Origin: Brucella pseudogrignonensis | GTDB taxonomy: Bacteria; Pseudomonadota; Alphaproteobacteria; Rhizobiales; Rhizobiaceae | Reading direction: 5' to 3' | Assembly: GCF_002252525.1 (NCBI RefSeq) | Contig: NZ_NNRM01000052.1 | Span: 62,001-126,000, forward strand | DNA length: 64,000 nt | Part shown: one piece after another, positions 49,248 to 64,000 of the stretch | Layout of the letters: each line of letters opens with the position of its first letter | How positions within the stretch are numbered: position 1 is the first letter of the stretch | Notes under the pieces: model-generated | What the model was told of the DNA's origin: nothing | Databases searched by the model: none | Seen by the model: the letters and a program-made list of their open reading frames with translations, nothing else | Translations under genes and position numbers: made by a program

Positions 49248-50783
49248 TTACTCAGCAGGTTTGATTTCGTATGGCAGCGTCCAGTCATCCCGGCGGATGT
49301 CCCATACGACTTTGTTGCTGTAGGCATAGGTTTGCGGCAGATCCCAAAGGAAGACGGCAAGCGCTTCGTCAGATGCCACTTCGGTCGCGCGTTTGACTGA
49401 TGCAAGCTCGGCGTCCTTGGTGAGTGCGCCTTTTGCCTGCTTCACTGCTTCGTCAAAGGCGGCTGGGACGGGTCCAATTGTCTGAAAATGCGTGCTGCCG
49501 AGATAGGTCAGTGTTTCAGCAGCAATGCTTGCCGTATCGGCGTAACCAAACCACGTCAGGCCAGCGGCTTTGTCAGACGCCGCGCGCTCGGCATGGGACG
49601 AGGCAGGCAGAATATTGAGCTGCGCACGTACTCCAACCGCTGCAAGCTGGGCCGCGATAATCTGCGCTGCCTGCTCTCCACCGACATAGGTGCCTTTGCC
49701 AAACACCATCTCGACATCAAAGCCATCCGGATACCCCGCTTCCGCAAGCAGCGCTTTGGCCTTCTCGGGATCATAAGGCCACGGCTTCAGGTCTGTGTTG
49801 TAGCCCTCATGGAAGCTGGTGATGATCTGGCTGTTGGCAGGGCTTACCAATCCCTTGAACAGCGCCTTTGTAATAGCTTCCTTATCAATGGCGTAGTTCA
49901 AAGCCTGCCGCACACGCGCATCATCAAGCGGCTTGATATTGGTGTTGAAACGGATGATCTGTACGCGCGTACTTGGGCGCGCACCTGCCACCAGATTACC
50001 ATTGCTTTCGAGCTGTGCGAGATCCTGCGGAGCGATAACCGCTGCGGCATCAATCTCGCCGGATTTCAGGCCGTTAATCTTGGCTGCAGCATCGACCACA
50101 ACTCGGAACTGCGCCTTGGTGAAGGGTGCTGCCTTGCCGAAGTAATGTTCATTGGCTTCAAGGCGAACTTCGCCCTCTGGATTATAGCTCACCAGCTTAT
50201 AGGGGCCGGTGCCAAGAGCCTCAATCGCTGGGTTGTGTGACTTGGCCCATTCAGGTTCCAGATAGAAAATGCCTGCCAGCCGTTTGGGAAACTCAATGTC
50301 GGGCGCTTTCAGCGTAAAGGCAACCTGATGCGGTGAAAGGACTTCAACCTTATCAACCGCCTTCATCGACGAGACGATCCAGCTTGGCTTTTCTGACGAC
50401 AGGATGCGCTCGATGTTCCACTTAACGACTTGAGCATCAAATGGCACATTGTTGGAGAAAACTACGTCGTCGCGCAGATCGAACACCCAACGCGTATCCG
50501 ACTCCTGTTTCCAGTCCTTGGCCAGAACACCCACCAGTTTGCCTTCACCATCAAGGCGCGTCAGTGGCGAATAGATTGAGGCGATGATGCTCAGATCGCC
50601 GCGCAAATTGCCCCCAACGGCTGGATCAAGGGTCTGCAAGGCATAAGGCAGCGCCACCACCAATTCATGGGTCTTGCCATAGTCCGCAGGTGCCTGCGCG
50701 TGGGTCGCCGATAGCGTTGCAGACATGAGAAGCAGGCTTGCTCCCATCAGTCTCAATGCGTGCAATGATCGTTTTACAATCAT
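49248..50783 (-). CDS. Peptide-type ABC transporter substrate-binding protein (SBP family 5)
   Basis: A 511-residue family-5 binding protein with a signal peptide to about residue 29 (SATHA before QAPADYG). Motifs are LQTLDPAVGGNLRGD, FDLRDDVVFSNNVPFDAQVVKWNIER, ALGTGPYKLVSYNPEGEV and ARVRQALNYAIDKEAITKALF. It is clearly diverged from the other three Dpp-type binding proteins in the window. It belongs to the operon of the ATPase and permeases at 50.8-54.3 kb, which precede it. Here the binding-protein gene is not first; order is dppB, dppC, dppDF, binding protein. Confidence 0.92.
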   Translation of the reverse strand: MIVKRSLHALRLMGASLLLMSATLSATHAQAPADYGKTHELVVALPYALQTLDPAVGGNLRGDLSIIASIYSPLTRLDGEGKLVGVLAKDWKQESDTRWVFDLRDDVVFSNNVPFDAQVVKWNIERILSSEKPSWIVSSMKAVDKVEVLSPHQVAFTLKAPDIEFPKRLAGIFYLEPEWAKSHNPAIEALGTGPYKLVSYNPEGEVRLEANEHYFGKAAPFTKAQFRVVVDAAAKINGLKSGEIDAAAVIAPQDLAQLESNGNLVAGARPSTRVQIIRFNTNIKPLDDARVRQALNYAIDKEAITKALFKGLVSPANSQIITSFHEGYNTDLKPWPYDPEKAKALLAEAGYPDGFDVEMVFGKGTYVGGEQAAQIIAAQLAAVGVRAQLNILPASSHAERAASDKAAGLTWFGYADTASIAAETLTYLGSTHFQTIGPVPAAFDEAVKQAKGALTKDAELASVKRATEVASDEALAVFLWDLPQTYAYSNKVVWDIRRDDWTLPYEIKPAE

Positions 50784-50812
50784 GTGTCTTTTTCCAGTTT
50801 TTGTGTTCAGAT

Positions 50813-52387
50813 TCAGAACTTGGGAGCGACAAGCGGCTTTCTGCCGGGAATGGCCGCAAGCAACTGTCGAGTGTAAGGATGAGCCGGAGCCTCAAAGATC
50901 CGGCGGGTTTCGCCGCGCTCAACGATTTCACCGCCGCGCATCACCACGACCTCGCGACAAAGCCGTGCAATGACCGATAGATCGTGAGAAATGAGCATTT
51001 GCGCAGTGCCATGCCGACGCTGCATGTCTTCCATCAAGGCAAGCACGCGCTCCCGCGATGTGGAGTCGAGTGCAGCAACTGGCTCATCGGCGATGAGAAG
51101 TTTGGGGCTGGGTGCAATCGCCCGCGCGAAACCTACGCGCTGGCGCTGTCCTCCCGATAAACGTCCCGGCAAGCGATGCCACAAAGCGGGATGGATACCG
51201 ACTTCTTCAAGCAAGCCTTGCGCAATTCTCAAAGCTTCAGCTTTGCGAAGCCCCTTGGCAAGCAAGGGTTCCGCCACTGTGTTCACGATGCTTATGCGTG
51301 GATCGAGAGACGAATACGGGTCCTGAAACACATATTGTACGTGGTCTGAGCGTGTCCGCGGAGGTCGAACATTGCCATCAATCAGGATATGGCCGTCATC
51401 TGCGCGCTCCAGTCCAGCAATAATCCGCGCCAGCGTGGTTTTACCCGAACCACTCTCGCCGACAATCCCCAGTGTCGTTCCAGACTTCACCAAAATATCG
51501 ACACCACCAAGCGCGCGCGGGCCATTGCGGAATGTCTTTTGAAGAGCCTTCACTTCAACAAGTGGAGGTTGGGAAGCAGCATCATGAAGCACACCACTCG
51601 CGGTCGCAAAAACCAGCTCGCTTGCCTTCAGAAGTGATCGCGCAGCGCGGCTCTTGGGATTTGTAAAAAGATTGAGCGTAGCGCCGCTTTCAACGATCGC
51701 CCCGCCATCCATGACAGCAACACTATCCGCTCGATCCCGGATCACGCCCATGTCGTGGGTAATCAGCAGAACACCGAACCCATGACGTTTTTGCAGTCGG
51801 GCAATGAGATCAAGAATTTGCGCCTGCACCGTTACATCAAGTGCTGTCGTCGGCTCATCCGCGATAAGCAGTTTCGGCTGCCGCGCCAAAGCCATCGCAA
51901 TGACAACGCGCTGCGCCAGCCCGCCCGAAAGTTCATGTGGCCAAGCGGTGAGCTTCTTCACCGGCTCGCTGATGCCCACCTCTTCCAAAAGGTGCAGGCA
52001 GATAGTCGCAGCCTTGGCCTTATCGCCGCGCATGGCAGGCGACAGGGCTTCAAACAGCTGAGCGCCAACGCTCAGCCGCGGATTAAGAGCCGTTGTCGGG
52101 TTTTGAAAAACCACACCAATCTGTGACGTTCTAAAGTCACGACCACGATCAGATATGCCAAGCGCGAGTGGTGCCCCATCGAGATAACTCTGTCCATCGG
52201 CATGAAGGCTCTGCGGCAGAAGCCCGGCAATAGCCATTGCCGTGAGGGTTTTACCGGAACCGGATTCACCAACAATCCCAAGCGTTTCGCCTTGTTTCAG
52301 CGTGAATGACACCGGACCTGCAAGTGCCGTTTCATTTGACCTGACAACCAGCCCTTCAACGGACAGAAGCGTGTTGATAATTGTCAT
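50813..52387 (-). CDS. Fused dual ATP-binding subunit of a peptide-type ABC transporter (DppD-DppF)
   Basis: A 524-residue tandem ATPase. Module one: Walker A GESGSGKT, signature ELSGGLAQRVVIAMAL (GGQ reads GGL), LLIADEPTTALD. Module two: Walker A GESGSGKT, signature RLSGGQRQRVGFARAI, LLIADEPVAALDST. The linker around residues 245-280 is short. It overlaps the DppC-like gene by 4 bp. It is the second fused dual ATPase here, of the same design as the one at 7995 but distinct in sequence, so the fusions are not a recent local copy. Confidence 0.92.
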   Translation of the reverse strand: MTIINTLLSVEGLVVRSNETALAGPVSFTLKQGETLGIVGESGSGKTLTAMAIAGLLPQSLHADGQSYLDGAPLALGISDRGRDFRTSQIGVVFQNPTTALNPRLSVGAQLFEALSPAMRGDKAKAATICLHLLEEVGISEPVKKLTAWPHELSGGLAQRVVIAMALARQPKLLIADEPTTALDVTVQAQILDLIARLQKRHGFGVLLITHDMGVIRDRADSVAVMDGGAIVESGATLNLFTNPKSRAARSLLKASELVFATASGVLHDAASQPPLVEVKALQKTFRNGPRALGGVDILVKSGTTLGIVGESGSGKTTLARIIAGLERADDGHILIDGNVRPPRTRSDHVQYVFQDPYSSLDPRISIVNTVAEPLLAKGLRKAEALRIAQGLLEEVGIHPALWHRLPGRLSGGQRQRVGFARAIAPSPKLLIADEPVAALDSTSRERVLALMEDMQRRHGTAQMLISHDLSVIARLCREVVVMRGGEIVERGETRRIFEAPAHPYTRQLLAAIPGRKPLVAPKF

Positions 52388-53262
52388 GCTGGCTCTCCTG
52401 TTTCGCGCGCGGAAAGCCTGCTTGAAAGGGCATCACCCAAAAGCTGCACACCAAAGAGAAGGCTGAGCAGAGCGAGAGCTGGCATAAGCGACAGCCACCA
52501 GGCGGCGCCTAGCTGCGATTTTCCCTGGGCGATCATCAGACCCCAATCGGCAGTTGGCGGCTGAATACCCAAACCAATGAAGCTGAGACCGGCTTCTGTC
52601 ATGATGATGAAGGCGGCACTTATCGTGGACGTTGCAATCAGCAGCGGCAACAGGCCTGGCACGATATGGCGCAGAACGGACTTCCACAGCGGAACACCTG
52701 CAAGCCATGCGGCTTCCATATAGCCCTGATTGCGCGCATTTAGCGTATAGGAACGCGCGACGCGGAAATGCAGAGGCCAGCTTTCAAGCGCCAGAATAAG
52801 GATCAGGTTCTCAAGCCTTGAACCAAATAATGCCAGTGCAAGAAGCGCCAAAACCAGACCGGGAATTGTCAGCTGAATTTCAGCGATCCGGGCAATGATC
52901 TGGTCGAGCAAACGATTGCTCAATCCTGCAACAATACCCAACAAACTTCCGATCAAAGCAGAAAGAAGCGTTGCAACGGTTGCAACCAGCAGAACAGGTC
53001 GCGCGCCGTAGAAGACCCTGCTTAAAATATCTCGTCCAAGATCATCGGTACCGAGCCAATGCCCGTTATTGAATGACGGCTCTTGCAGGAACGCCATCAG
53101 ATCACTGGAGTTGGGCTCGTAAGGTGCAAGGAGTGGCGCAAAGATGGCAGCCACCACCCAGAGCAGGATGATCAGCAAGCCGAACTTGCCTCTCAACGCC
53201 AGTCTTGGCGTTGGAATTTCGCGCGGGCTACCAGCGATTTCAGAAGTGGAAATATTGCTCAT
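52384..53262 (-). CDS. Peptide-type ABC transporter permease (DppC-like)
   Basis: A 292-residue permease. Motifs are LLIILLWVVAAIFAPLLAPYEP in the first helix, GTDDLGRDILSRVFYGAR, an EAA loop NQGYMEAAWLAGVPLWKSVLRHIVPGL and LSFIGLGIQPPTADWGLM. Overlaps of 4 bp join it to dppB upstream and to the fused ATPase gene downstream. Confidence 0.92.
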   Translation of the reverse strand: MSNISTSEIAGSPREIPTPRLALRGKFGLLIILLWVVAAIFAPLLAPYEPNSSDLMAFLQEPSFNNGHWLGTDDLGRDILSRVFYGARPVLLVATVATLLSALIGSLLGIVAGLSNRLLDQIIARIAEIQLTIPGLVLALLALALFGSRLENLILILALESWPLHFRVARSYTLNARNQGYMEAAWLAGVPLWKSVLRHIVPGLLPLLIATSTISAAFIIMTEAGLSFIGLGIQPPTADWGLMIAQGKSQLGAAWWLSLMPALALLSLLFGVQLLGDALSSRLSARETGEPA

Positions 53263-54293
53263 TTTGTCACCGCACTTCGTGGATCGACAACAGCGATGAA
53301 AAGATCAGCGAGCAGATTGCAGAAACTGACGGTCAGGGCGATCAAGACAATCGCCGCCAGAATGACTGGGTAATCTTTCATAGCAACGGCGCTAACCAGA
53401 ACTGTACCAACACCCGGCCAGCCAAAGACTGTTTCTGTCAGAACAGCGCCGCCCAACAGGGTTCCCGTTTGCGTGCCCAAGAGTGCGATCACAGGAACCA
53501 GGGCATTGATTGCGATGTGCCTGAAACGCACACGACCGAGCGAAATCTGTTTTGATAAAGCAGTGCGGACATGGTCTGCGCCCTGCTGCTGTTTAAGACT
53601 GGTGCGAAACAGTCGCGCTACGGGTGGAGCAATCAGCAGAGACAAAGTCAAAGCAGGTAAAACGAGATGACGCAGGCTTCCACTGCCCCCCGTTGGCAGC
53701 CAGCCAAGCGTCAATGAGAAGAATAGAACCGCAAGAATGCCGGTCACAAAAACAGGCGTCGACTGTACAACGGTCAAAAGTGCCAGCGGACCTTCACGGA
53801 GAAACCGGTTTGATGAGGTGGCCGATAGATAACCAGCTATCAGCCCTAATGCTGAACCGATCAAAAGTGCCGCCAAAACCAGCACTAGCGTCAGTGGGAT
53901 AGCAGGCGCCAGAACATCAACAGCAGGGATGTCAAAACGCAATGATTTTGGAAACTCGCCACGCAGGGTGTTAAACAGGAATTGCCCATATTGCTCAATC
54001 ACAGGGCGATCAAACCCATAGCTGGCATTCAGCGCTGCGATTTCTTCTTTCGTCGCCTGTCCGCCCGCGAGCAAAGTAGCCGGGCTGCCGGTTGCAAAAA
54101 TCAGAAAGAAAACCAGAGACACTGAACCAAGAACAGAAATTACCGTCGCACCGAGCCTTTGCAGGATAAAAGATGGGCGAATATCGCGCCGCCGACGCGG
54201 CAGCTTGCGCAAGACAATCCGCTGAGTCTGTCCGCTATGAGCGCCCTCTTCGGCCTGCAGCCAGAACTCCTGTTCACGCGATGTGATGTTCAT
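53259..54293 (-). CDS. Peptide-type ABC transporter permease (DppB-like)
   Basis: 344 residues from ATG at 54293 (MNITSREQEFW); a longer frame to 54338 is possible but AT-rich and unlike family members. A cytoplasmic tail of about 50 residues (RKLPRRRRDIRPS) precedes the first helix, longer than usual for DppB, so an even later start cannot be excluded. Family motifs are FATGSPATLL, YGFDRPVIEQYGQFL, an EAA-like loop KQQGADHVRTALSKQISLGRVRFRHIAINA, and LFIAVVDPRSA at the end. It is the first gene of the 54.3-45.8-kb operon. Confidence 0.88.
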   Translation of the reverse strand: MNITSREQEFWLQAEEGAHSGQTQRIVLRKLPRRRRDIRPSFILQRLGATVISVLGSVSLVFFLIFATGSPATLLAGGQATKEEIAALNASYGFDRPVIEQYGQFLFNTLRGEFPKSLRFDIPAVDVLAPAIPLTLVLVLAALLIGSALGLIAGYLSATSSNRFLREGPLALLTVVQSTPVFVTGILAVLFFSLTLGWLPTGGSGSLRHLVLPALTLSLLIAPPVARLFRTSLKQQQGADHVRTALSKQISLGRVRFRHIAINALVPVIALLGTQTGTLLGGAVLTETVFGWPGVGTVLVSAVAMKDYPVILAAIVLIALTVSFCNLLADLFIAVVDPRSAVTK

Positions 54294-54744
54294 AACGAGC
54301 TTTCGATAATTAATTCTAGTGAATTTATAGATTATCAATCGTCAGCTATTAAGCACCTGACGTTTCGTTTGAAACGCCAACACCGAAACAATTTCCCAAA
54401 CATGCGTCAGCTCTTAGGTTGAAAACATCAGCATCTCAGATGCTGACGAAACCGTAGCTACAAACGATCCAATTTTTGGGGAAATATGAGAATGAAGGCG
54501 GTGCGTTTAGGCTTTGTCGCCTCGCCGATCCCGCAGTCTATGCCTAGAAACAGAAGACTTCTGGCGCACTTAACCGAGGGCTCTATACGTCAGTTCCGCA
54601 TTGAGCCGATACGTCTGCCGGACATCAGCCAGTTTGTTTGGGACTGATATCCTACAAGGTTCAATAATTGAAATCATATGAGGACGCGGGAAACTCGAGT
54701 AATATTCTATTATTACGATCCTACTTCCGCTTTTAAGCCAGCCC
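54294..54744. promoter_or_regulatory. Intergenic region upstream of the 54.3-kb operon, with an 8-bp-arm inverted repeat
   Basis: About 450 bp between dppB and the downstream end of the DhaL gene. It contains TCAGCATC-TCA-GATGCTGA (54428-54446), a perfect inverted repeat about 135 bp upstream of the dppB start and a candidate operator. It also holds a possible 53-codon plus-strand frame (54486-54647). No terminator with a T-run was found for the DhaK/DhaL operon that ends at 54745. Confidence 0.45.
54486..54647 (+). CDS. Possible small ORF, 53 residues, unknown
   Basis: ATG at 54486 preceded closely by GGGG (54477-54481) opens a 53-codon frame ending TGA 54647. The product starts MRMKAVRLGFVASPIPQS and is basic, with no membrane segment. 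I recognise no family. It may be a small protein, a remnant of a longer gene, or chance. Confidence 0.25.
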   Translation: MRMKAVRLGFVASPIPQSMPRNRRLLAHLTEGSIRQFRIEPIRLPDISQFVWD

Positions 54745-55386
54745 TCAGCTCTTTGCCGATGCCGCCATCGCCTGCAGGATGATGACCGTCGATGCAGCCC
54801 CTGGATCAATGTGACCAAGCGAACGTTCGCGAAGACGCGCGGCACGCCCTTTGGCTGCAATCATGGATCGGGTCGTGTTGGCACCGGCCGTGGCAGCTGA
54901 GACAATCCTATTCCAGAATTCGCCCGCGCTTTGATTTTCATTCACCGCCGTTTGCGCGGCTTCGGCGGCAGGCAGCCAGGCATCAAGCATTGTCTTGTCG
55001 CCACGCTGTCCGTGGCCTCGCTCACGAATGCCAACGCCGATGGCCTCAATGATGATCGCACAAGTCACCAGATCAAGATCGTTGCGGCCTGCCGTTGCCT
55101 GCGCTGCACGGCGGAAGCCAGTGGCATAAAGCGGCCCAGTCGATGCACCGACCGCATTAATGAATGCGGTCGCCGCCGTATTGAGAACCGTCGAAATGTC
55201 GGTTTCATCAAGATTAAGCTTCGACAATTCACTGCGCACGGCCTGAAAGCCCAGGGCCATTGTCGTTCCATGGTCGCCGTCACCGATCGCGCCGTCGAGT
55301 TCGGATAGCCGATCGCGTTCCGCTTCAAGCGACGCAGACACAGCATCAAACATATGGGCAAGACGACGAGCCGCAGTTTCCGACAT
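54745..55386 (-). CDS. Dihydroxyacetone-kinase-type L subunit (DhaL, ATP-binding), copy 2
   Basis: 213 residues from ATG at 55386 (ribosome site AGGAG); the 5-residue longer start is unneeded. DhaL motifs are intact: LDGAIGDGDHG with Asp31, Asp36 and Asp38 to hold Mg-nucleotide, GASTGPLYATGF, GDKTMLDAWLPA and KGRAARLRERSLGHIDPGAAS. The all-helical DhaL barrel transfers phosphate from a nucleotide to the ketose held covalently by DhaK. No DhaM (PTS) gene is nearby, so ATP is the likely donor. It lies 105 bp after the SorC-DhaK fusion gene and is its likely partner. Confidence 0.91.
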   Translation of the reverse strand: MSETAARRLAHMFDAVSASLEAERDRLSELDGAIGDGDHGTTMALGFQAVRSELSKLNLDETDISTVLNTAATAFINAVGASTGPLYATGFRRAAQATAGRNDLDLVTCAIIIEAIGVGIRERGHGQRGDKTMLDAWLPAAEAAQTAVNENQSAGEFWNRIVSAATAGANTTRSMIAAKGRAARLRERSLGHIDPGAASTVIILQAMAASAKS

Positions 55387-55491
55387 GGATTTTCTCCTCA
55401 AACCTTACAACTGCAACGCGCGTCGCTCGTCATAAGGCGTATGCTAATTTACTTTCAGGCACCGTGAAACGATAGAACCCAAACACAGCCT

Positions 55492-57579
55492 TTAGCTGAT
55501 TTTGAGGCCTGCCGTTTCACATGGATGCAGCAGCAGCTCCGACAGCTCATGATCGAGATGCATGATTGATATCGATGCTCCGACCATATCAAGAGACGTG
55601 CAATAATGCCCGATCCAGTTGGCTTCAATGTGAATATTCTTGGCTTCAAGTCGCTGCGCCACACGCCGATAGAGAACGTAAAGTTCCATCAGCGGTGTCG
55701 CTCCGAATGAGTTGACCAGAACCGCCACGCGATCACCCGGAACAGCCTTCATTTCGTTGAAGATTCTGTCCATGATGCCGTCAACAATTTCATCGGCCTG
55801 ACGAATGCGATCACGCGATACACCCGGCTCGCCGTGAATGCCAACGCCGATTTCCATATCTTCGGGGCCGATTTCAAAATTATGCCGACCGGTTTGCGGC
55901 AACGAACCCGGCTCAAGTGCCACACCGATCGTATAAGTCCGCGAATTGGCCTTGCGGGTAACGATCTCACAGGCATCGAGCGACAAACCCTTGTCGCAGG
56001 CAGCCCCTGCCACCTTGAAGACGAAGAAATTACCTGCCACGCCGCGGCGTCCGTCCTTGTCGTCGATTGGCGATGAGGCAATATCGTCGGTAGTCAGAAC
56101 CCTCTTGATCCTGACGCCCTTTTCCTCGGCTATTTCAGCCGCCATCTCGAAGTTCATAACGTCGCCGGCATAATTGCCATAGACGAAGAGAACGCCTTCG
56201 CCGTTGGAAGCTGCCAGCGCGCATTGCACAATCGGATCGGGCGGAGGCGATGAGAAGACATTGCCGACCGCAACAGCGTCAGCCAGTCCCTTGCCCACAT
56301 AGCCCACAAAGCATGGCTCGTGACCGGCACCACCGCCAATGACAAGCCCCACCTTGCCGGGGCGCGGACCATCTCGCGCGACCAGTGCCCGGTTGGAGCC
56401 GCCAATCGGCTGCACGAATTTGCTATGGGCCCGAACAATACCGTCGAGCATTTCCTCAACCACTTCGTTTGGATTGTTGAGGAGCTTCTTCACCCGCACG
56501 CGAAAAGCTGTAGGAACCTGATTGGTCTTGGGCTTCTGCGAAAGACGCGCATCAAGATCAATCACACCATCGGCGCGCAAAATACCGAGTCCTGTCGCAG
56601 CATCGGTCACAAGCACATTGATGAAACCGCCGCGGAGCGCTGCCAGAAGTGCTGGCACTTTGTCGAAACCGCCTGCAACCGCAATACGGGTATGAATCTG
56701 CCGCAGCTTATCCAGTGAGATGCCGATTGTCCGCTCATCGAGCGGACCTGCAACCGGTTTCCCACGCTCATCGATGAAACGGCCTGCCACAACACCGACA
56801 GCGCCCGCTGCAAGATATTGCTGCAGAGAAACCGATTCAAAAAAGCCGCTGGTGTGAATGGTAGAATTGGAACGAAGCGACGAAACGCCGAAAAGAATGC
56901 GATTGGCATTCTCAAGGGTCGCAAATTGTTCCTGAAGCAAAGGCTCTTCGAGCAACACATCCCGAGTCTGTTGCGAACGCACCATGGCGGGCGCCATAAT
57001 ATTCACGCAGCGTGCCGAGACGGCTTCTGCAAGCGCTGCCGCACAACGTTCGGGCGTATAGGGAAATGACGCCGTGGTGCCGCCTGTCGCCTGCACGACT
57101 GTCATGTCCTGCAAAGAGCCGATGGCAGTTTGCTCGCCGACCGAAAGCACCGTCCGTCCCCAGGCAACCGCGAGTGTATCGCCGGATTTGAGAATCTTGT
57201 TAAGCGCATGTGCGCCCGCAACCCCAAGTCGATCAATCAACGGGCGGGCATTGTCGTCATGCGGAATGATAAGGCAGTCTGTCAGGCCGAAATGGCGCTT
57301 CAACTCCTGAGCAACAGACAGCGATTCCAACCGCCCACCCTCAAGGGAGATGTTGACGATGCCCTTATCGCGCGCTTCGGCCAAATAGCTGTTCACGGTT
57401 GCGCGCGAAATGCCCATGACATCGGCAATCTCGCTCTGCGTCAGGCCGTCTTCGTAATAAAGCCAGCAGGCCCATACATAGGGATCATCGCCATAACGCA
57501 TGGGAATCGTGATCGAATTCTCGCTTGTACCGGTCTTTGGTTTGCCGACCTTGCGCGATGGGTTGGGCTTGAGCGTCAT
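55492..57579 (-). CDS. SorC-type transcriptional regulator fused to a DhaK kinase subunit
   Basis: 695 residues from ATG at 57579. The first half is a SorC/DeoR-like regulator: helix-turn-helix about residues 46-71 (LTQSEIADVMGISRATVNSYL), then a sugar-phosphate-binding domain to about 347 (GDTLAVAWGRTV, GVSSLRSNSTIHTSGFF, GDFAAGAVGVVAGRFID-like text). A complete DhaK domain follows from about 359. Its ketose-handling residues are present: GGGAGHEP (His420), NYAGD (Asp473) and GIHGEPG (His582, the residue that binds the ketone covalently in E. coli DhaK). The protein should bind DNA and ketose in one chain. It sits between dhaL copies in the rbs-SDR-dhaKL operon. No frameshift or stop separates the halves. 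Confidence 0.93.
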   Translation of the reverse strand: MTLKPNPSRKVGKPKTGTSENSITIPMRYGDDPYVWACWLYYEDGLTQSEIADVMGISRATVNSYLAEARDKGIVNISLEGGRLESLSVAQELKRHFGLTDCLIIPHDDNARPLIDRLGVAGAHALNKILKSGDTLAVAWGRTVLSVGEQTAIGSLQDMTVVQATGGTTASFPYTPERCAAALAEAVSARCVNIMAPAMVRSQQTRDVLLEEPLLQEQFATLENANRILFGVSSLRSNSTIHTSGFFESVSLQQYLAAGAVGVVAGRFIDERGKPVAGPLDERTIGISLDKLRQIHTRIAVAGGFDKVPALLAALRGGFINVLVTDAATGLGILRADGVIDLDARLSQKPKTNQVPTAFRVRVKKLLNNPNEVVEEMLDGIVRAHSKFVQPIGGSNRALVARDGPRPGKVGLVIGGGAGHEPCFVGYVGKGLADAVAVGNVFSSPPPDPIVQCALAASNGEGVLFVYGNYAGDVMNFEMAAEIAEEKGVRIKRVLTTDDIASSPIDDKDGRRGVAGNFFVFKVAGAACDKGLSLDACEIVTRKANSRTYTIGVALEPGSLPQTGRHNFEIGPEDMEIGVGIHGEPGVSRDRIRQADEIVDGIMDRIFNEMKAVPGDRVAVLVNSFGATPLMELYVLYRRVAQRLEAKNIHIEANWIGHYCTSLDMVGASISIMHLDHELSELLLHPCETAGLKIS

Positions 57580-57620
57580 GCGATTTTCTGTTGCCTCTCT
57601 CCTGCGCAGCAAACATGAAA

Positions 57621-57699
57621 GCGTTCAAACGCAATTGCAACATGATGAAACGAATTTGGCGCCTGAACGTGTGGACCCACACAGTTTTCAGACGCCAAA
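57621..57699. promoter_or_regulatory. Dyad elements between dhaL and the sorC::dhaK gene
   Basis: A long imperfect dyad covers 57655-57699: outer arms TTTGGCG / CGCCAAA, then CTGAA / TTCAG, then GTGTG / CACAC around GACC. Closer to the regulator start are GCGTT-CA-AACGC (57621-57632) and GCAATTGC (57631-57638). The long dyad can form an RNA hairpin after dhaL (attenuator) or be an operator for the SorC domain. Both readings are inferred. Confidence 0.55.
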
Positions 57700-57721
57700 C
57701 TCAAAATCGGGACAGAAAGCC

Positions 57722-58363
57722 TTACTGCAAGCGGCTCTTTGCCTGTGCTGCGAGATCAGTCAGAATCAGTGCGCAGGATGTTGCGCCCGCATCAAGGACA
57801 CCCAGTGAACGCTCACCAAGACGGCTTGCGCGACCGATCTTTGCCACGAGATTAAGTGTGGAGTCGCGACCGACTTCAGCAGCTGCCGACAAAGCGTCCA
57901 GGCTTTCAGCAAAAGACTGACCCTTGCCATTTGCTTCGTCAAAAGCATTGATTGCCGGGATCAGCGTGTCGAGCAGTGTCTTGTCACCAAGCTTTGCCGA
58001 ACCGATCGACTGGATGCCTTCAAGACCTGCATGAAGCATGGTGCTGAACGTGGCTGCATCAATATTTTCGATGCCTTCCAGCTTTTCTGCAAACTCGTTG
58101 AACATCACGCCATAAAGCGGACCCATCGAGCCACCGATTTCGGTCAGCAAAACTGTTCCGAGCGTATCAAGACCTTCAGCAAGGGTTACATCCTTGCCGC
58201 GCAGGCGTTCGGCCGCGAGGCCGAAACCCTTGGCCATGTTCACACCATGGTCGCCATCGCCGATCTTGCCGTCGATTTCGCTTAAGTAAGCTTTGTTTTC
58301 GATAATCCGGTCTGCAAGCGAAAGAACGATCTCACCCGATCCGGCATTCTTGAATGTCTGCAT
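57722..58363 (-). CDS. Dihydroxyacetone-kinase-type L subunit (DhaL, ATP-binding), copy 1
   Basis: A 213-residue DhaL. IDGKIGDGDHG gives Asp31, Asp36 and Asp38 for Mg-nucleotide binding; GGSMGPLYGVMF, GDKTLLDTLIPA and RASRLGERSLGVLDAGATS follow. It differs clearly from the second copy at 54745, so the two are not a recent duplication. It lies 14 bp after the stand-alone dhaK gene and should form the kinase with it. A dyad region follows before the sorC::dhaK gene. Confidence 0.92.
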   Translation of the reverse strand: MQTFKNAGSGEIVLSLADRIIENKAYLSEIDGKIGDGDHGVNMAKGFGLAAERLRGKDVTLAEGLDTLGTVLLTEIGGSMGPLYGVMFNEFAEKLEGIENIDAATFSTMLHAGLEGIQSIGSAKLGDKTLLDTLIPAINAFDEANGKGQSFAESLDALSAAAEVGRDSTLNLVAKIGRASRLGERSLGVLDAGATSCALILTDLAAQAKSRLQ

Positions 58364-58377
58364 GATATGCCTCTTTC

Positions 58378-59373
58378 TTACAAAACCGCCGTGCAGCGGG
58401 CTTCTACATCCAGCAGTGCTTTCAGTTCATCATCCAACGCCATGACTGTCAGCGTCGCACCAACCATTTCGAGCGACGTGAAGTAATTGCCGACATAGGT
58501 GCGATAAACCTTGAGGCCGCGCGCGGTAATTTCCTGCTCGATGGTATCGTTGAGGATATAAAGCTCGTTGATCGGCGTTGCGCCAAGTCCGGAAACCAGA
58601 ACCGCAACTTCGGTGCCTTCGGGCAAATTGTGATCTTCGAGAACGATCTTGCTCATGTCCTTGGCAACTTCGTCAGCACGCTTCAACGGCTCGACGCGGA
58701 CGCCCGGCTCGCCATGATGGCCGATACCGACTTCCATCGTACCCGGCTCGATCTGAAAGTTCGGATGGCCGACAGCTGGCAGCGTGCACGGACCAAGGCC
58801 AACGCCGATAGAACGACAATTGTCGATGGCCTTCTGTGCCGTTGCCTGTACTTCCTGAAGGCTTGCACCCGATGCAGCTTTTGCACCGCCAACCTTCCAC
58901 ATGAAGATTTCGCCAGCAACGCCGCGACGCTTTTCGCGCTCGCTAGCAGGCGCAGAGCAGACATCGTCATTGGCAACGACGGTCAAAACTTCAATTCCGG
59001 CCTTGGCAGCAAGCTTGATCGCCATTTTGACGTTCATGTTGTCGCCAGCATAGTTGCCATAAAGACAGACGACGCCTTTACCACCATTGGCTTCACGAGC
59101 GGCATCATAGAAGCTCTTGGCAGTTGGCGAGGAGAACAGTTCGCCAACGGCAACAGCATCAAGCAGGTTCTTGCCGGTATAGCCGATGAAGGCAGGCTCA
59201 TGGCCCGAGCCACCACCGGTAATAACGCCAACTTTCCCCTCGATAGGTGCATCTTTCGCGACAACCACGCGAGGATTTTCCGTCGAAAGCCGGACCAGGT
59301 CTTTATGCGCCTTGATGAAACCCTTGACGGTATCTTCGACCACTTCATCAGGGTTATTGATAAATCTTTGCAT
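58378..59373 (-). CDS. Dihydroxyacetone-kinase-type K subunit (DhaK, ketose-binding)
   Basis: A 331-residue DhaK. Catalytic positions are intact: GGGSGHEP (His58), GNYAGDNMN (Asp111) and GIGHHGEPG (His220, equal to the covalent His of E. coli DhaK). The end MVGATLTVMALDDELKALLD is typical. With the DhaL encoded next to it, it should phosphorylate a short ketose such as dihydroxyacetone, erythrulose or apulose in the cytoplasm. The neighbouring SDR would make the ketose from a polyol. The substrate is inferred from context only. Confidence 0.93.
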   Translation of the reverse strand: MQRFINNPDEVVEDTVKGFIKAHKDLVRLSTENPRVVVAKDAPIEGKVGVITGGGSGHEPAFIGYTGKNLLDAVAVGELFSSPTAKSFYDAAREANGGKGVVCLYGNYAGDNMNVKMAIKLAAKAGIEVLTVVANDDVCSAPASEREKRRGVAGEIFMWKVGGAKAASGASLQEVQATAQKAIDNCRSIGVGLGPCTLPAVGHPNFQIEPGTMEVGIGHHGEPGVRVEPLKRADEVAKDMSKIVLEDHNLPEGTEVAVLVSGLGATPINELYILNDTIEQEITARGLKVYRTYVGNYFTSLEMVGATLTVMALDDELKALLDVEARCTAVL

Positions 59374-59465
59374 TTTGCACCTATCGAAGGCGAGAGATGA
59401 GTTCCCGCTCTATAATTTTAAAGCCGTGTTTTCGGCCCCGAACAATCGTCAGACCGTTCGCTTTG

Positions 59466-60239
59466 TTAAAGAATTGTGTAGCCACCATCGATCAGAAGGT
59501 CGGCACCATTTATCATGTTCGCACCGCTTGACGCCAGAAAGACTGCGGCGGCTGCAATTTCTTCCGGAAACGCGAAGCGTCCGGTTGGAATGCGCTTCTT
59601 GGCGGCTTCGCCCTTTTCGCCGTTCCAGGCCTTCTTGCCCAGTTCCGTGAGAACAATGGTCGGAGAGATCGTGTTGACGGTGATGCCGTATTTGCCCCAT
59701 TCGGCAGCAAAGGTTTTCGACATGCCGATAACACCGAACTTCGACGCGCAGTAAGCAACATGCTCTTCAATCGCAACAGTACCGGCCTGCGAGGCGAGAT
59801 TGACGATCTTGCCGCCTTTGCCTGCAGCGATCATTGCACGGCCCACTTCCTGCGTGACGAGGAAGCTGCCCTTGAGGTTGATTGCAATCGTGCGATCCCA
59901 ATCGGAAATGGTCAGATCTTCGGCGGGAGCGAGGAAAACAACACCGGCGCTGTTTACAGCGATATCGATCTGTCCGAATGCCTCGACCACGCCTGATACC
60001 GCAGCCTTCACCGAAGCCGGATCAGATACGTCGCAGACGAAAGGCTTTGCATCCGCTCCAAGCGCTTCTGCCTTGGCACGCGCCTGATCAGCATTGATAT
60101 CAAGCACAGCAACCTTTGCACCCTTGGCAGCGAAGGCTTCAGCAACGGCCGCGCCAATACCGGAAGCAGCGCCAGTTACCAGAGCAACTTTACCGTTGAG
60201 GGGGAAGTTCAGGTCGATTTGGGGAGATTGGTCGGACAT
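59466..60239 (-). CDS. Short-chain dehydrogenase/reductase, probable polyol dehydrogenase
   Basis: 257 residues from ATG at 60239 (GAGGATC ribosome site); the longer frame to 60371 runs into the rbsB-like gene and is rejected. TGxxxGxG is intact (VTGAASGIG), with NSAG (VNSAGVVF), catalytic Ser in VNLASQAG and YCASK. The end GANMINGADLLIDGGYTIL is classical. It uses NAD(P). Between the sugar transporter and dhaK, oxidation of an imported polyol to a ketose for the kinase is the simplest role. Confidence 0.91.
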   Translation of the reverse strand: MSDQSPQIDLNFPLNGKVALVTGAASGIGAAVAEAFAAKGAKVAVLDINADQARAKAEALGADAKPFVCDVSDPASVKAAVSGVVEAFGQIDIAVNSAGVVFLAPAEDLTISDWDRTIAINLKGSFLVTQEVGRAMIAAGKGGKIVNLASQAGTVAIEEHVAYCASKFGVIGMSKTFAAEWGKYGITVNTISPTIVLTELGKKAWNGEKGEAAKKRIPTGRFAFPEEIAAAAVFLASSGANMINGADLLIDGGYTIL

Positions 60240-60279
60240 TGTTTGATCCTCGGTGTTGAGGGTAGCGGAATGTTTGGGT

Positions 60280-60308
60280 TGCGGGATGAGCTGGATGCCC
60301 ATCCCGCA
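60280..60308 (-). other. Intercistronic hairpin after the sugar-binding-protein gene
   Basis: TGCGGGATG / CATCCCGCA arms with an 11-base loop lie just past the binding-protein stop (60317) and before the SDR start. No T-run. It is the same placement as hairpins after other binding-protein genes in this window. Confidence 0.65.
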
Positions 60309-60316
60309 GTTCTCTA

Positions 60317-61303
60317 TTACTTGCGTGCTTCGAGCAGCTTGTCGACATTGTCGGCAGTTACTGGCGTCCAAGGAACATTGTATTCCTTGTCCTTACCGTC
60401 GTTGAACGGCATGTCAGGATACTGAGCCCAGATATCGGACTGTGGCTTGTAGTCGCCCTTCTTCGCGTGGAAGATTGCGAGATCCATTGCACCCTGCGCC
60501 TGAGCGCGAGCATCCTGCAGGATCGACGTCATGGTACCGGCCTTAACTGCATTAAGCGCATCGGTCACACCGTCGATACCGGCGATAGCAAAGTCATCAA
60601 CCTTAAGGCCTGCCGACTTGATCGCTTCAATCGCGCCGAGAGCCATTTCGTCGTTCTGGCCGATTACACCGTTGATTTCGCCCTTGTGTGCGGTCAACCA
60701 GTTTTCCATCAGCGTCTGTGCTTCAGCGCGCGACCAGTTTGCGGTCTGCTGTTCAAGAACCTTCACGTCCGGGCATTCAGCAAGCGCCTTCTTGTTGCCT
60801 TCGAGGCGCGAAACCTGCGACGACTGACCAATCGGGCCTTCGATGATGACGACATTGCCCTTGCAACCGATTTTGTCGAGAACGGTCTTGGCTTCCATGT
60901 AGCCGGAAACCGCATCGTCAGAACCGACATAAGAAGCCAGAAGATCAGAGTTTACGCGGGTGTTGGAACCAACAACCGGAATGTTTGCATCGGCAGCTGC
61001 CTGAACGGCAGTCGCACCGGCTTCAACATCGATCGGCACGAAAATGATCGCGTCGAACTGCTGGGTGATCATGGTGTTGAACTGTTCCTGCTGAACGAGC
61101 GCGTCATAGCGACCGTCGAAAACCGTCAACGAAACTTCGCCGCTCTTCACAGCTGGATGTTCTTTCAGCGCTTCAGACCAGATCTGCATGAATTCAGCAT
61201 TCAGGCCGTAAGGGGCTGCGCCAATCTTCAGCTTTTCCTGAGCATTTGCGGCGCCTGCGAGCAGAGCCGTAGCCGATGCCAGGGCAATCAGCAGTTTCTT
61301 CAT
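60317..61303 (-). CDS. Ribose-type sugar ABC transporter substrate-binding protein (RbsB-like)
   Basis: 328 residues from ATG at 61303, with a GGAGGAG ribosome site; the longer upstream frame is rejected. Sec signal peptide to about residue 21 (GAANA before QEK). Family text: KIGAAPYGLNAEFMQIWSEALKEH, FDAIIFVPIDVEAGATAVQAAADANIPVVGSNTRV, GVIGQNDEMALGAIEAIKSAGL and AIAGIDGVTDALNAV. It delivers the sugar or polyol to the RbsC-like permease at 61389. Similar in type to, but distinct from, the binding protein at 451. Confidence 0.93.
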   Translation of the reverse strand: MKKLLIALASATALLAGAANAQEKLKIGAAPYGLNAEFMQIWSEALKEHPAVKSGEVSLTVFDGRYDALVQQEQFNTMITQQFDAIIFVPIDVEAGATAVQAAADANIPVVGSNTRVNSDLLASYVGSDDAVSGYMEAKTVLDKIGCKGNVVIIEGPIGQSSQVSRLEGNKKALAECPDVKVLEQQTANWSRAEAQTLMENWLTAHKGEINGVIGQNDEMALGAIEAIKSAGLKVDDFAIAGIDGVTDALNAVKAGTMTSILQDARAQAQGAMDLAIFHAKKGDYKPQSDIWAQYPDMPFNDGKDKEYNVPWTPVTADNVDKLLEARK

Positions 61304-61388
61304 TGGTATTCTCCTCCACAATATCCGCGATGATTGAATGTGCGGCTTTGGTTGCGCCATGAAACTGGCAGTTCAGACTTTTTAGAAA

Positions 61389-62393
61389 TCAGGCGCTCTG
61401 GTTGCGTTTCTGATCGAGCATGACTGCACCGACGATCAACGCACCTTTGAGAACCTGCTGGTAGTAAGATTCGATACCCATCAGATCGAGACCATTATTC
61501 ATGACGCCAATAATGAGCGCGCCAATCAGCGTTCCCGTGACACGGCCTACGCCGCCCGAAAGACTGGTGCCGCCGATAACAACCGCAGCAATTGCATCCA
61601 GTTCGTAAGCAATACCGGCCTGTGGCAGCGCGGAGCCGGTGCGGGCAGCAAGCATCATACCTGCAAGGCCGGAAAGTGCGCCGGAGATGACATAGACAGA
61701 GAAACGAACGCGAGTGACGTTGATACCCGATGTCTTTGCTGCATGTGGATTACCGCCAACAGCATAGACATAACGGCCGAAGCGCGTGCGCGTGAGAACC
61801 CACCAGGCACCGATGAAGACAATCGCCAGAATAATGACAGGCATCGGGATGCCCATAATCTTGGCAGTTCCGATCCAGCGGAAATCCGGGATCAGTGCAG
61901 GCACAGGCTTACCGCCACCGTAGATAAGCGTCATGCCGCGTGCAGCCGACAGCATACCGAGCGTTGCTACGAATGCTGGCACCGAGAAACGCGAAACAAT
62001 CCAGCCAACCAGTGCGCCGCAGGCACAACCAACTGCAAGACCGGCAGCAATGGCGACGATTGCCGGATAAGGGCCGCCCGCAACGCTTGCAGCGGCAGAT
62101 GTCGTGGCGAGGCTCGCTGCAACAATACCTGTGAGCGCTGCAACTGAGCCGACAGATAGGTCAATGCCCCGCGTCAGAATAACAAACGTCATACCGATCG
62201 CCAGCACACCGTTGATCGAGGTTTGCAGGAGGACGTTTGAAATATTGCCCGTTGTCAGGAAGTATGGATTCGACACCGACAGAATGAAGACCAGAAGCAG
62301 GAAGGCTAGGAAAATGCCGTATTCCTGAATGATCAACCGGCGCTTCTCGGAAGCGAACCAGCTGTTCGTTTGTGTTTTCTCGATATTGCTCAC
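61389..62393 (-). CDS. Ribose-type sugar ABC transporter permease (RbsC-like)
   Basis: A 334-residue CUT2 permease with about eight to ten membrane helices. Motifs are NPYFLTTGNISNVLLQTSINGVLAIGMTFVILTRGIDLSVGSV near the start and the conserved GNPHAAKTSGINV, then AAVVIGGTSLSGGVGRVTGTLIGALIIGVMNNGLDLMGI. It forms the channel for the RbsA-like ATPase (62522) and RbsB-like protein. The gap to the ATPase gene holds a Rhizobiales-type hairpin. Confidence 0.93.
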   Translation of the reverse strand: MSNIEKTQTNSWFASEKRRLIIQEYGIFLAFLLLVFILSVSNPYFLTTGNISNVLLQTSINGVLAIGMTFVILTRGIDLSVGSVAALTGIVAASLATTSAAASVAGGPYPAIVAIAAGLAVGCACGALVGWIVSRFSVPAFVATLGMLSAARGMTLIYGGGKPVPALIPDFRWIGTAKIMGIPMPVIILAIVFIGAWWVLTRTRFGRYVYAVGGNPHAAKTSGINVTRVRFSVYVISGALSGLAGMMLAARTGSALPQAGIAYELDAIAAVVIGGTSLSGGVGRVTGTLIGALIIGVMNNGLDLMGIESYYQQVLKGALIVGAVMLDQKRNQSA

Positions 62394-62464
62394 GTTTTCC
62401 AGCCTCTTCCCAGCCTGCCAGTGTCAGGCCTAATCTCAATCAAGCGTGCAGAGCATTGCATTAC

Positions 62465-62503
62465 GCGCATCCCGAAAACCGGTTCCCGCTTTTTGGGATG
62501 CGC
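62465..62503. repeat. Rhizobiales-type intergenic palindromic repeat
   Basis: Arms GCGCATCCCGAAAA and TTTTTGGGATGCGC, with one mismatch, enclose CCGGTTCCCGC. From general knowledge, hairpins of this sequence type are dispersed in intergenic regions of Hyphomicrobiales genomes. Here it lies between rbsA-like and rbsC-like genes of one operon and may modulate expression between them. Only this copy was noticed in the window. Confidence 0.75.
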
Positions 62504-62521
62504 TTAGATCAACGCCCGCCA

Positions 62522-64000
62522 TCAGGTTGACAGATGCACCAGCTTTTGTGCGTCAGTGTCGGCCCTGTCATAGACGCCAGCCGACCGGCCCTGCCGCATC
62601 ACGAGGATACGGTCGGACATGCCCAGAACCTCGTCGATTTCAGATGAAATCATTACGACGGTGCCGCCTGACGCAGTGAATTCGCAGATAATGCGATAGA
62701 TTTCGCGTTTTGCGCCCACATCCACACCGCGTGTCGGCTCATCAAGCAACAACAGGCGCGGATTGCGCAGGAACCATTTGCCCAGCACAACTTTCTGCTG
62801 GTTGCCGCCCGAAAGACCGGAAACCGGCATCGTGTCGCGTGCTGCCTTGATGCCGAAATGCGCGATCATCTTAGCGCTTGCTTCAGCTTCTTCGCGCTGA
62901 CGCATGGCAAATGACGGGCTCATTTCAGGAAGACTGGCAAGGCAGATATTGGCGCGCACACTGTCTGTGAGGTTAAGTCCCGTTAGCTTGCGGTCTTCGG
63001 TGACAAAGGCAATGCCTTCAGCCATTGCATCAGCAGGCTTGCCCACTTTGAGCGCGCAGCCCTCAAGTCGAATCTCGCCCTTGCTTGCCTTTTCGAGACC
63101 GAAGATGCAGTTGAAAATTTCGGAACGACCAGAACCCATCAGGCCATAAATGCCAAAGATTTCGCCCTTGCGGACCGAGAAGGAAATATCTTCGATCTTG
63201 CCAGGAAGAGCGAGATCGGAAACCTCGAAGCCAATCTGATCGGTAGGCTCGTTGGTCTTGATGAATTCTTCGCCAAGCTCACGCCCGACGATCAGACGGA
63301 TCAGTTCGGCACGGTCGATATCGCTCAGCGCGCCCGAGCCGACATAACCGCCGTCGCGGAAAACCGTATAGGAATCTGCGATCTGGAAAATCTCGGACAG
63401 GCGATGCGAGACATAAACAATGCCTTTACCTTCAGCCTTGAGACGCTCGACCGCCTTGAACAGCTGCTGCGCTTCCTTTTCACCGATGGCCGATGTCGGC
63501 TCATCCATGAAGATCACATCGGCATTGTGGCTGAACGCCTTGGCGATTTCCACGAGCTGCATCTGTGCAACCGACAACTGGCTCATCACCTGTGTCGCGC
63601 GAATGTCAAACTCCAGACGATCCAGAAGCGCCTGCGCTTCATTGTTCATCTTCTTGAAGTCAATGCCGCCAAATCGTGCTGAAGGTTCACGACCAAGAAA
63701 GATATTCTCTGCAACACTCATATGCGGAACAGGGCTCAGCTCCTGTTCGATAATCGCGATACCGGATTTAAGCGCTTCCGCAGGCGTCGAATACTGAACC
63801 TCTTCGCCGCGCAGCCAAATCTTGCCGCCGTCGCGCTGCTGGATACCCATCAGAATGGAGAGGAACGTGGATTTGCCTGCGCCATTGCCGCCGCAAAGCG
63901 CATGGACCGAACCTGCACGCAGTTCCAGCTGGCCATTGCGAAGTGCTGCAACACCGCTGAACGATTTTTTCAGGCTCTCAACTTTCAATAGCGTCTGCAC
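62522..64000 (-). CDS. Ribose-type sugar ABC transporter dual ATPase (RbsA-like), 5' end at window edge
   Basis: 492 residues are visible, read from a GTG whose first base is the last base of the window. The start matches the usual RbsA beginning, but an upstream start cannot be excluded. Two ABC modules: the first with GGNGAGKST (Walker A, usual GENGAGKST with E to G) and VIFMDEPTSAI. The second lacks a canonical Walker A, reading GLMGSGRSEI as is normal for RbsA, and has LSGGNQQKVVLGKWF and LLLDEPTRGVDVGAKREIY. It powers the RbsC/RbsB-like system and is the first visible gene of the DhaK operon. Confidence 0.93.
   Translation of the reverse strand: MQTLLKVESLKKSFSGVAALRNGQLELRAGSVHALCGGNGAGKSTFLSILMGIQQRDGGKIWLRGEEVQYSTPAEALKSGIAIIEQELSPVPHMSVAENIFLGREPSARFGGIDFKKMNNEAQALLDRLEFDIRATQVMSQLSVAQMQLVEIAKAFSHNADVIFMDEPTSAIGEKEAQQLFKAVERLKAEGKGIVYVSHRLSEIFQIADSYTVFRDGGYVGSGALSDIDRAELIRLIVGRELGEEFIKTNEPTDQIGFEVSDLALPGKIEDISFSVRKGEIFGIYGLMGSGRSEIFNCIFGLEKASKGEIRLEGCALKVGKPADAMAEGIAFVTEDRKLTGLNLTDSVRANICLASLPEMSPSFAMRQREEAEASAKMIAHFGIKAARDTMPVSGLSGGNQQKVVLGKWFLRNPRLLLLDEPTRGVDVGAKREIYRIICEFTASGGTVVMISSEIDEVLGMSDRILVMRQGRSAGVYDRADTDAQKLVHLST

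What the first reader, a model, noticed from the sequence alone, without database searches (positions are those of the whole stretch)
55492..57579. Transcription factor fused to the ketose kinase of its own pathway
The sequence shows one uninterrupted frame with a SorC helix-turn-helix and sugar-phosphate-binding domain (about 1-347) joined to a full DhaK domain (about 359-695). His420, Asp473 and His582, the positions that bind and activate the ketose in known DhaK proteins, are all present. SorC regulators sense phosphorylated sugars, so the fused kinase domain could make or deliver the effector to its own sensor domain. Alternatively, flux through the kinase could change DNA binding. Such a chain would combine gene control and first committed catalysis. 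Fusions of this kind may exist as annotations in related genomes; a tested mechanism is not known to me.
Basis: partly seen in the sequence, partly recalled or inferred. Interest (0 to 1): 0.78.

Follow-up and report, generated by a model that had tools for sequence, protein, structure and literature searches.

The report
Gene repressor fused to sugar kinase
One bacterial protein joins a DNA-binding, sugar-sensing repressor to one subunit of a sugar kinase from the same pathway; databases already name this architecture, its mechanism is untested, and here its likely DNA target and likely sugar type are worked out.

Summary
In detail: 55492-57579 (-) is one uninterrupted 695-aa frame, a SorC-type regulator plus a full DhaK domain, with His420, Asp473 and His582 present and invariant in 24 aligned fusions. 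It is no artefact: 23 of 397 genomes sampled in the order carry it, and RefSeq entries name it 'bifunctional sugar-binding transcriptional regulator/dihydroxyacetone kinase subunit DhaK'. New here: (1) a predicted operator, two TTGACAwwTGTCAA-like palindromes 21 bp apart, lies at the rbsA promoter just beyond 64000; it scores in 14 of 26 held-out fusion loci against 3 of 88 others. None was found in 57600-57710. (2) The kinase half is probably live: in one complete genome the fusion is the only Dak1 domain, and a DhaL gene adjoins it in 40 of 40 loci. (3) Isomerase genes near related loci and a D-threitol-dehydrogenase-type SDR suggest erythrulose rather than dihydroxyacetone. (4) A second DhaK/DhaL pair lies in the same operon, so 'first committed step' is unproven. 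That the kinase product induces its own repressor is inferred, not shown. New variant of a known kind; moderate interest.

The parts
55492..57579 (-). SorC-type regulator (aa about 1-336), flexible linker (about 337-363), DhaK domain (about 364-695), one chain of 695 aa
54745..55386 (-). DhaL2, partner gene of the fused DhaK; Asp31, Asp36, Asp38 kept in 40 of 40 loci. The listed ORF starts at 55401 (TTG); an in-frame ATG at 55386 is used here
57722..58363 (-). DhaL1, next to the second, stand-alone DhaK
58378..59373 (-). DhaK1, second complete DhaK subunit of the operon; present in 38 of 40 fusion loci, in a clade of its own
59466..60239 (-). SDR dehydrogenase of the GolD/DthD (D-threitol dehydrogenase) family; start chosen by me at the ATG
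   Evidence: NF005309, 408 bits, cut-off 286; run on 59466-60242; homologue named D-threitol dehydrogenase
60317..61303 (-). RbsB-like periplasmic binding protein; start chosen by me inside the listed ORF 60317-61360
61389..62393 (-). RbsC-like ABC permease
62522..64000 (-). RbsA-like ABC ATPase, first gene of the operon (GTG start at 64000); its predicted operator is just outside the window at contig C47:126021-126055, which would be 64021-64055
57653..57702 (-). strong hairpin in the dhaL1-fusion intergenic region; not an operator
   Evidence: same repeat seen by eye in B. thiophenivorans

Best explanation
A bifunctional repressor and ketose-kinase subunit of a tetrulose (erythrulose/threitol) uptake operon. 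The SorC half, as a dimer of dimers, sits on two palindromes 21 bp apart that overlap the -35 and -10 regions of the transporter/kinase promoter and blocks it. The DhaK half, tethered by a flexible linker of 24-30 residues, binds the ketose covalently and, with the adjacent DhaL and ATP, phosphorylates it. The ketose phosphate made by this half (and by the second DhaK1/DhaL1 pair) is the most likely inducer of the SorC half, as phosphorylated sugars are for CggR, DeoR and LsrR. Shown by sequence: architecture, kept active-site residues, partner gene, conserved operator-like pair. Inferred: repression, kinase activity, ATP as donor, tetrulose as substrate, product as inducer.
For: Both halves match solved proteins in sequence and predicted fold: DhaK 3ct4/3pnk/3pnl, SorC family 8r7y/4l5i/2w48; linker 343-361 has pLDDT below 50. 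Active-site residues 40 of 40; DhaL2 beside the fusion with its Asp triad 40 of 40. No DhaM in the genome, controls positive, so a PTS donor is unlikely. In G349 (100% complete) the fusion is the only Dak1 domain; DhaL2 follows it and a TIM-type gene lies next, convergent. Dual site before rbsA in 14 of 14 training loci; score 15 or more in 14 of 26 held-out fusion loci, 3 of 88 non-fusion loci, 0 of 26 reversed sequences. TIM2- or RpiB-type genes in 10 of 41 fusion loci, 18 of 30 loci of the stand-alone sister clade, 6 of 14 of the next clades, 0 of 42 other DhaK loci. CggR is reported to be induced by FBP and DHAP (PMC11229326, passages).
Against: No experiment. The operon has a second DhaK/DhaL, so the fused kinase may be secondary. 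TIGR02363 (DhaK equivalog) scores 383 bits, under its cut-off of 406 (DhaK1 also, 350). In the model the active-site stretch 581-583 has pLDDT below 50. 12 of 26 held-out fusion loci had no strong dual site; 11 of these 12 are in the second fused subclade, where only 6 of 17 score. At up to one mismatch the half-site is no commoner in the genome than its reversed control; only its exact match singles out this promoter. No isomerase gene lies in the window's operon; the EryH/EryI-like pair is on another contig.
Confidence: 0.55

Rival explanations
1. Trigger-enzyme reading: the DhaK half senses substrate occupancy or DhaL docking and passes it to the SorC half by contact, like E. coli DhaK/DhaL acting on DhaR or L. 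lactis DhaQ acting on DhaS (recalled); the phosphorylated product is not the signal.
For: Solved DhaR(N)-DhaK complexes and DhaQ are among the top fold matches (4lrx, 4lry, 2iu4). E. coli Dha kinase controls expression by binding DhaR (title of Bachler 2005, seen only in the reference list of PMC6643234).
Against: The regulator here has its own Sugar-bind effector domain. The predicted linker is disordered and pTM is 0.53, so no fixed contact between the halves is predicted.
Confidence: 0.2
2. Fusion of convenience: the halves work independently; fusion only fixes stoichiometry and co-expression, and the SorC half reads the bulk pool of its effector.
For: Linker variable in sequence and length. 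A split form exists: in L072 SorC and DhaK are neighbouring frames 96 bases apart, with a dual site at the start of SorC.
Against: Architecture kept in a clade of 38 rows over several family codes. The split form rests on one contig that ends inside DhaK; the two other neighbouring pairs found (L063, L064) have a distant SorC, 28%.
Confidence: 0.2
3. DhaQ-like: the fused DhaK half has lost kinase activity and is only a ligand-binding domain, DhaK1/DhaL1 being the enzyme.
For: A second full DhaK/DhaL pair goes with 38 of 40 fusions.
Against: Active-site residues invariant; a DhaL2 gene in 40 of 40 loci; sole Dak1 domain in G349; DhaQ model 199 bits against 383 for DhaK.
Confidence: 0.05

Closest known systems
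RefSeq/PGAP 'bifunctional sugar-binding transcriptional regulator/dihydroxyacetone kinase subunit DhaK' (Sinorhizobium, Ensifer, Roseibium, Paracoccus)
   Same: Same architecture; 49-79% identity in the tables; dhaK1/dhaL1 and dhaL2 as neighbours
   Different: Nothing in kind; this protein is a member. No experimental paper on it appeared in the listings
LsrR/LsrK, AI-2 system (recalled)
   Same: SorC-family repressor whose inducer is made by the pathway's own kinase; RbsABC-like importer
   Different: There the kinase is a separate protein of another family
E. coli DhaR with DhaK/DhaL; L. lactis DhaQ/DhaS
   Same: DhaK-fold proteins control transcription of their own pathway (structures 4lrx, 2iu4)
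   Different: Separate chains and other regulator families (recalled); DhaQ is titled a co-activator
BirA, NadR, PutA, ROK repressors (all recalled)
   Same: DNA binding and a pathway enzyme, or enzyme fold, in one chain; BirA makes its own corepressor
   Different: Unrelated enzymes; neither SorC nor DhaK
LerK/DerK erythrulose kinases of tetritol pathways (LerK seen in passages of PMC10733421; DerK recalled)
   Same: Kinase step before LerI- and DerI-type isomerases; DthD-type dehydrogenase
   Different: No regulator fused (recalled); their sequences were not compared here

Membership tests
SorC family, SorC/DeoR subfamily | 50-60-residue HTH followed by Sugar-bind (PF04198) effector domain | tested here: met
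   HTH about 40-75; PF04198 86-334, 202 bits against 27; LsrR, DeoR, SorC
SorC family, SorC/DeoR subfamily | operator of two half-sites bound by a tetramer | tested here: inconclusive
   dual palindrome at 21 bp found and partly conserved; binding and tetramer not testable
SorC family, SorC/DeoR subfamily | phosphorylated-sugar effector | not testable with these tools
   DeoR's effector-binding Lys (recalled) aligns with Thr165 (read), so a DeoR-like covalent effector is unlikely
DhaK (Dak1) kinase subunit | Dak1 domain with the His56, Asp109, His218 equivalents | tested here: met
DhaK (Dak1) kinase subunit | NCBIfam equivalog TIGR02363 above cut-off | tested here: not met
   383 bits, cut-off 406; so not filed as a dihydroxyacetone-specific DhaK
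DhaK (Dak1) kinase subunit | DhaL partner with its Asp triad | tested here: met
   DhaL2, 40 of 40 loci
PTS-dependent DhaKLM | DhaM present | tested here: not met
   0 matches to TIGR02364 in the window's genome; controls E. coli, L. lactis, H. volcanii positive
DhaQ co-activator | TIGR02362 equivalog above cut-off | tested here: not met
   199 bits, cut-off 413
Erythrulose kinase (LerK/DerK-like) | genomic link to EryH/LerI-type TIM and EryI/DerI-type RpiB | tested here: inconclusive
   10 of 41 fusion loci, 18 of 30 sister loci, 0 of 42 others, but the window's own operon has neither
Erythrulose kinase (LerK/DerK-like) | kinase activity on L- or D-erythrulose | not testable with these tools
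   needs an assay

The most novel reading that the evidence does not exclude
A self-inducing one-chain switch: the kinase half phosphorylates the incoming tetrulose and its product, at high local concentration, relieves the repressor half of the same molecule at its operator; a sugar-kinase counterpart of BirA, arisen once or twice from a neighbouring sorC-dhaK gene pair.
Probability: 0.3. Interest if true: 0.75.

Novelty: new variant of a known kind. Interest (0 to 1): 0.5.

Why it matters
If the kinase half feeds or gates its own repressor half, enzyme flux and gene control are coupled inside one molecule, which can be tested with point mutants of one gene. It also gives candidate transporters and kinases for tetroses, which one recent study calls unreported and enigmatic (PMC12780249, passages), and a predicted regulon motif for rhizobia and their relatives.

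Tried and rejected
Operator at 57600-57710: rejected; the only dual site of score 9 or more is at 64021-64055; no Rfam match in 54000-64000. PTS-driven kinase: rejected for lack of DhaM. DhaQ-type dead kinase: disfavoured. Single origin of the fusion: unresolved. In the DhaK tree 38 fusion rows form one clade and two (L050, L059) fall among stand-alone DhaKs; in the SorC tree a single origin appears in 12% of 200 bootstrap trees. Wider spread: at E 1e-150 or better, none besides the window's genome in a class sample of 385; two genomes of another family in a phylum sample of 398. Half-site as a genome-wide marker: weak; 6 matches (5 places) at up to one mismatch, as many as the control. Literature: ten searches, no study of the fusion in the listings; most returned unrelated papers, and listings are capped. 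Errors in my notes: one search gives the operator as C47:126026-126063 (it is 126021-126055), says 'control 0 exact', which one search does not show.

Full report
What is there. The frame 55492-57579 (-) encodes 695 aa without interruption. Pfam finds PF04198 at 86-334 and PF02733 at 380-690, with HTH models at about 40-75. AlphaFold2 on 23 rows gives two folded halves (mean pLDDT 79.2) joined by a disordered stretch 343-361; pTM is 0.53, so their relative position is not predicted, and the active-site stretch 581-583 is itself below pLDDT 50. Among Foldseek's best PDB matches are DhaK structures, including E. coli DhaK-DhaL and DhaR(N)-DhaK, L. lactis DhaQ, and DeoR, LsrR and SorC. His420, Asp473 and His582 align with E. 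coli His56, Asp109 and His218 (my count).

Context. On the minus strand the operon reads rbsA-rbsC-rbsB-SDR-dhaK1-dhaL1-[SorC-DhaK]-dhaL2. The SDR belongs to NCBIfam 'GolD/DthD family dehydrogenase' (408 bits, cut-off 286). The same order is annotated in Ensifer adhaerens. S. meliloti keeps dhaK1-dhaL1-fusion-dhaL2 beside another, divergent ABC importer. The genome has no DhaM, four Dak1 domains, one RpiB and two TIM proteins; the second TIM lies next to RpiB on contig C48, like the EryH/EryI pair of the erythritol pathway (recalled). The closest named relative is Brucella thiophenivorans, 91% (which may leave out the window's own genome), so the window lies in or near the Ochrobactrum-type part of Brucella.

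Spread. In 397 genomes of the order, 22 hold a full-length fusion and one more (G310) has it cut by a contig end (9 family codes). In the genus sample 19 of 35 genomes have a full-length match (my count of the rows). The class sample of 385 shows none besides the window's own genome at E 1e-150; the phylum sample of 398 adds two genomes of another family. Of plasmid records, 102 of 217 with a match at E 1e-100 cover at least 80% of the query. Several carry the name quoted above, so the architecture is not new to databases.

Is the kinase half alive? Loci examined: 40 with an uninterrupted fusion, the window included; L042 and L086 are near-duplicates, and the contig-cut L061 was left out. The three DhaK residues are kept in 40 of 40, and a DhaL2 gene with its Asp triad is present in 40 of 40. 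In L050 and L059 the DhaK1 and DhaL1 hits are only cross-hits to the fusion and its DhaL2, so DhaK1 is present in 38. For G349 (L059) the fusion is the only Dak1 domain in a 100% complete genome; G087 (L050) has three more elsewhere. L059 also has a TIM-type gene next to DhaL2, convergent with it and so not in its transcript, 52% identical to the window genome's second TIM and 37% to its first. I take this as good but indirect evidence for activity.

Which sugar? TIM2- or RpiB-type genes (E at most 1e-20) lie in 10 of 41 fusion loci (L042 and L086 both counted), 18 of 30 loci of the stand-alone sister clade, 6 of 14 loci of the next clades, and 0 of 42 loci with other DhaKs (groups drawn by me from the tree; flanks reach 10 kb at most and several loci are short contigs). 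In L042, L044, L086, L046 and L048 rpiB is divergent from rbsA or dhaK1, with the dual site between them. With the DthD-type SDR this points to threitol/erythrulose. Which kinase takes which erythrulose enantiomer is not decided; DhaK1 beside the DthD-type enzyme would suit D-erythrulose and the fusion L-erythrulose (inference).

Operator. Upstream of rbsA, 14 of 14 compared loci share TTGACATwTGTC followed 21 bp later by a second, looser copy. The first TTGACA and a hexamer 17 or 18 bp on, which matches TATAAT at 3-4 of 6 positions, fall inside the two palindromes, as for a repressor covering its promoter. A weight matrix from the 12 distinct training sites, run on 26 fusion loci left out of training, gives a dual score of 15 or more in 14 of 26; non-fusion loci 3 of 88; reversed held-out loci 0 of 26. 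The 14 are unevenly spread: 8 of 9 held-out loci near the training clade or in L050/L059, but only 6 of 17 in the second fused subclade. Of the three non-fusion hits one is L072, where SorC and DhaK are separate neighbouring genes, one is a locus of a SorC paralogue (L179), and one is L117. Spacings between good half-sites in held-out loci: 21 bp in 10 cases, 20 in 3, and 23, 25, 48 and 50 once each. In 22 of 26 held-out loci the best site, strong or weak, lies within 500 bases upstream of a mapped transporter, dehydrogenase, kinase or regulator gene; not so in L045, L050 (where it overlaps the start of the fusion), L052 and L055. In the window's genome the half-site matches exactly once, at the rbsA promoter; one-mismatch matches are no commoner than in the control. 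The B. subtilis DeoR operator is likewise two half-operators in 39 bp, TTGAACA-type, overlapping the promoter (PMC11229326, passages).

Origin. In the DhaK tree (169 rows, quick method, SH-aLRT only) 38 fusion rows form one clade (98) and their 38 DhaK1 partners another (100). L050 and L059 pair (95) inside a sister clade otherwise made of stand-alone DhaKs, with the split locus L072 nearby. In the SorC tree (62 rows) L050 and L059 lie with L072 and stand-alone SorC paralogues (88/98). The two halves thus seem to share a history; one fusion with later splitting and two fusions both remain possible.

Mechanism. Shown: architecture, kept active-site residues, partner gene, conserved dual site, lack of DhaM. 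Inferred from family knowledge: repression, tetramer, phosphorylated-ketose effector. CggR is reported to be induced by FBP and DHAP (PMC11229326, passages), and LsrR by phospho-AI-2 made by the pathway's kinase (recalled). The lysine to which DeoR binds its effector (recalled) aligns with Thr165 here, nearly invariant in 24 rows, which argues against a DeoR-like covalent effector. The step that would make this remarkable, product of one half acting on the other half, has no direct evidence.

Literature. Ten searches of the open-access library listed no study of this fusion (see Tried and rejected). Papers seen: PMC12780249 (passages and section 7), PMC11229326, PMC6643234, PMC4777399 and PMC10733421 (passages only). 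PMC12780249 isolated tetrose users, among them Ery-15, whose closest match in its table is Brucella pseudogrignonensis (99.9), and says that transporters and kinases specific to tetroses have not been reported; its growth tests cover four other isolates.

Verdict. Real, conserved, already named, mechanistically unexplored; moderate interest.

Noticed in passing
window 57653-57702 (-): Strong hairpin between dhaL1 and the fusion gene, repeat also seen in B. thiophenivorans (L081); perhaps an attenuator or partial terminator.
   Followed up: partly
L038, L039, L040, L041, L082, L083, L089, upstream of the fusion gene: Recurring element of the kind TTGCAA...ATTGCTT before the fusion gene in rhizobia, perhaps an internal promoter of its own (seen by eye).
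   Followed up: no
L081 446-480, L082 3556-3590: A second, weaker dual site upstream of the main one, which may allow cooperative binding or looping.
   Followed up: no
window genome C48:61645-62837, C48:63753-64679: RpiB next to a second TIM, with a SorC-type regulator nearby: looks like the erythritol (ery) region.
   Followed up: partly
window genome C40:188174-201863: Two further DhaK genes, one of them a one-chain DhaK-DhaL, with ABC genes and a SorC regulator.
   Followed up: partly
L181 (Rhizobium sp. RCAM05350), between the two dhaL genes: Fusion-like stretch matched by tblastn but without a listed gene there; maybe disrupted or just unlisted, since the table is incomplete.
   Followed up: no
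L179, L180: Stand-alone SorC paralogues (42%) of R. etli and S. meliloti beside FGGY kinases; their loci also score 12 or more for the dual site.
   Followed up: no
window 49248-54338 (-): Genes that look like an oligopeptide/nickel-type ABC transporter downstream of dhaL2 on the same strand; only the binding protein at 49248-50783 was searched.
   Followed up: no
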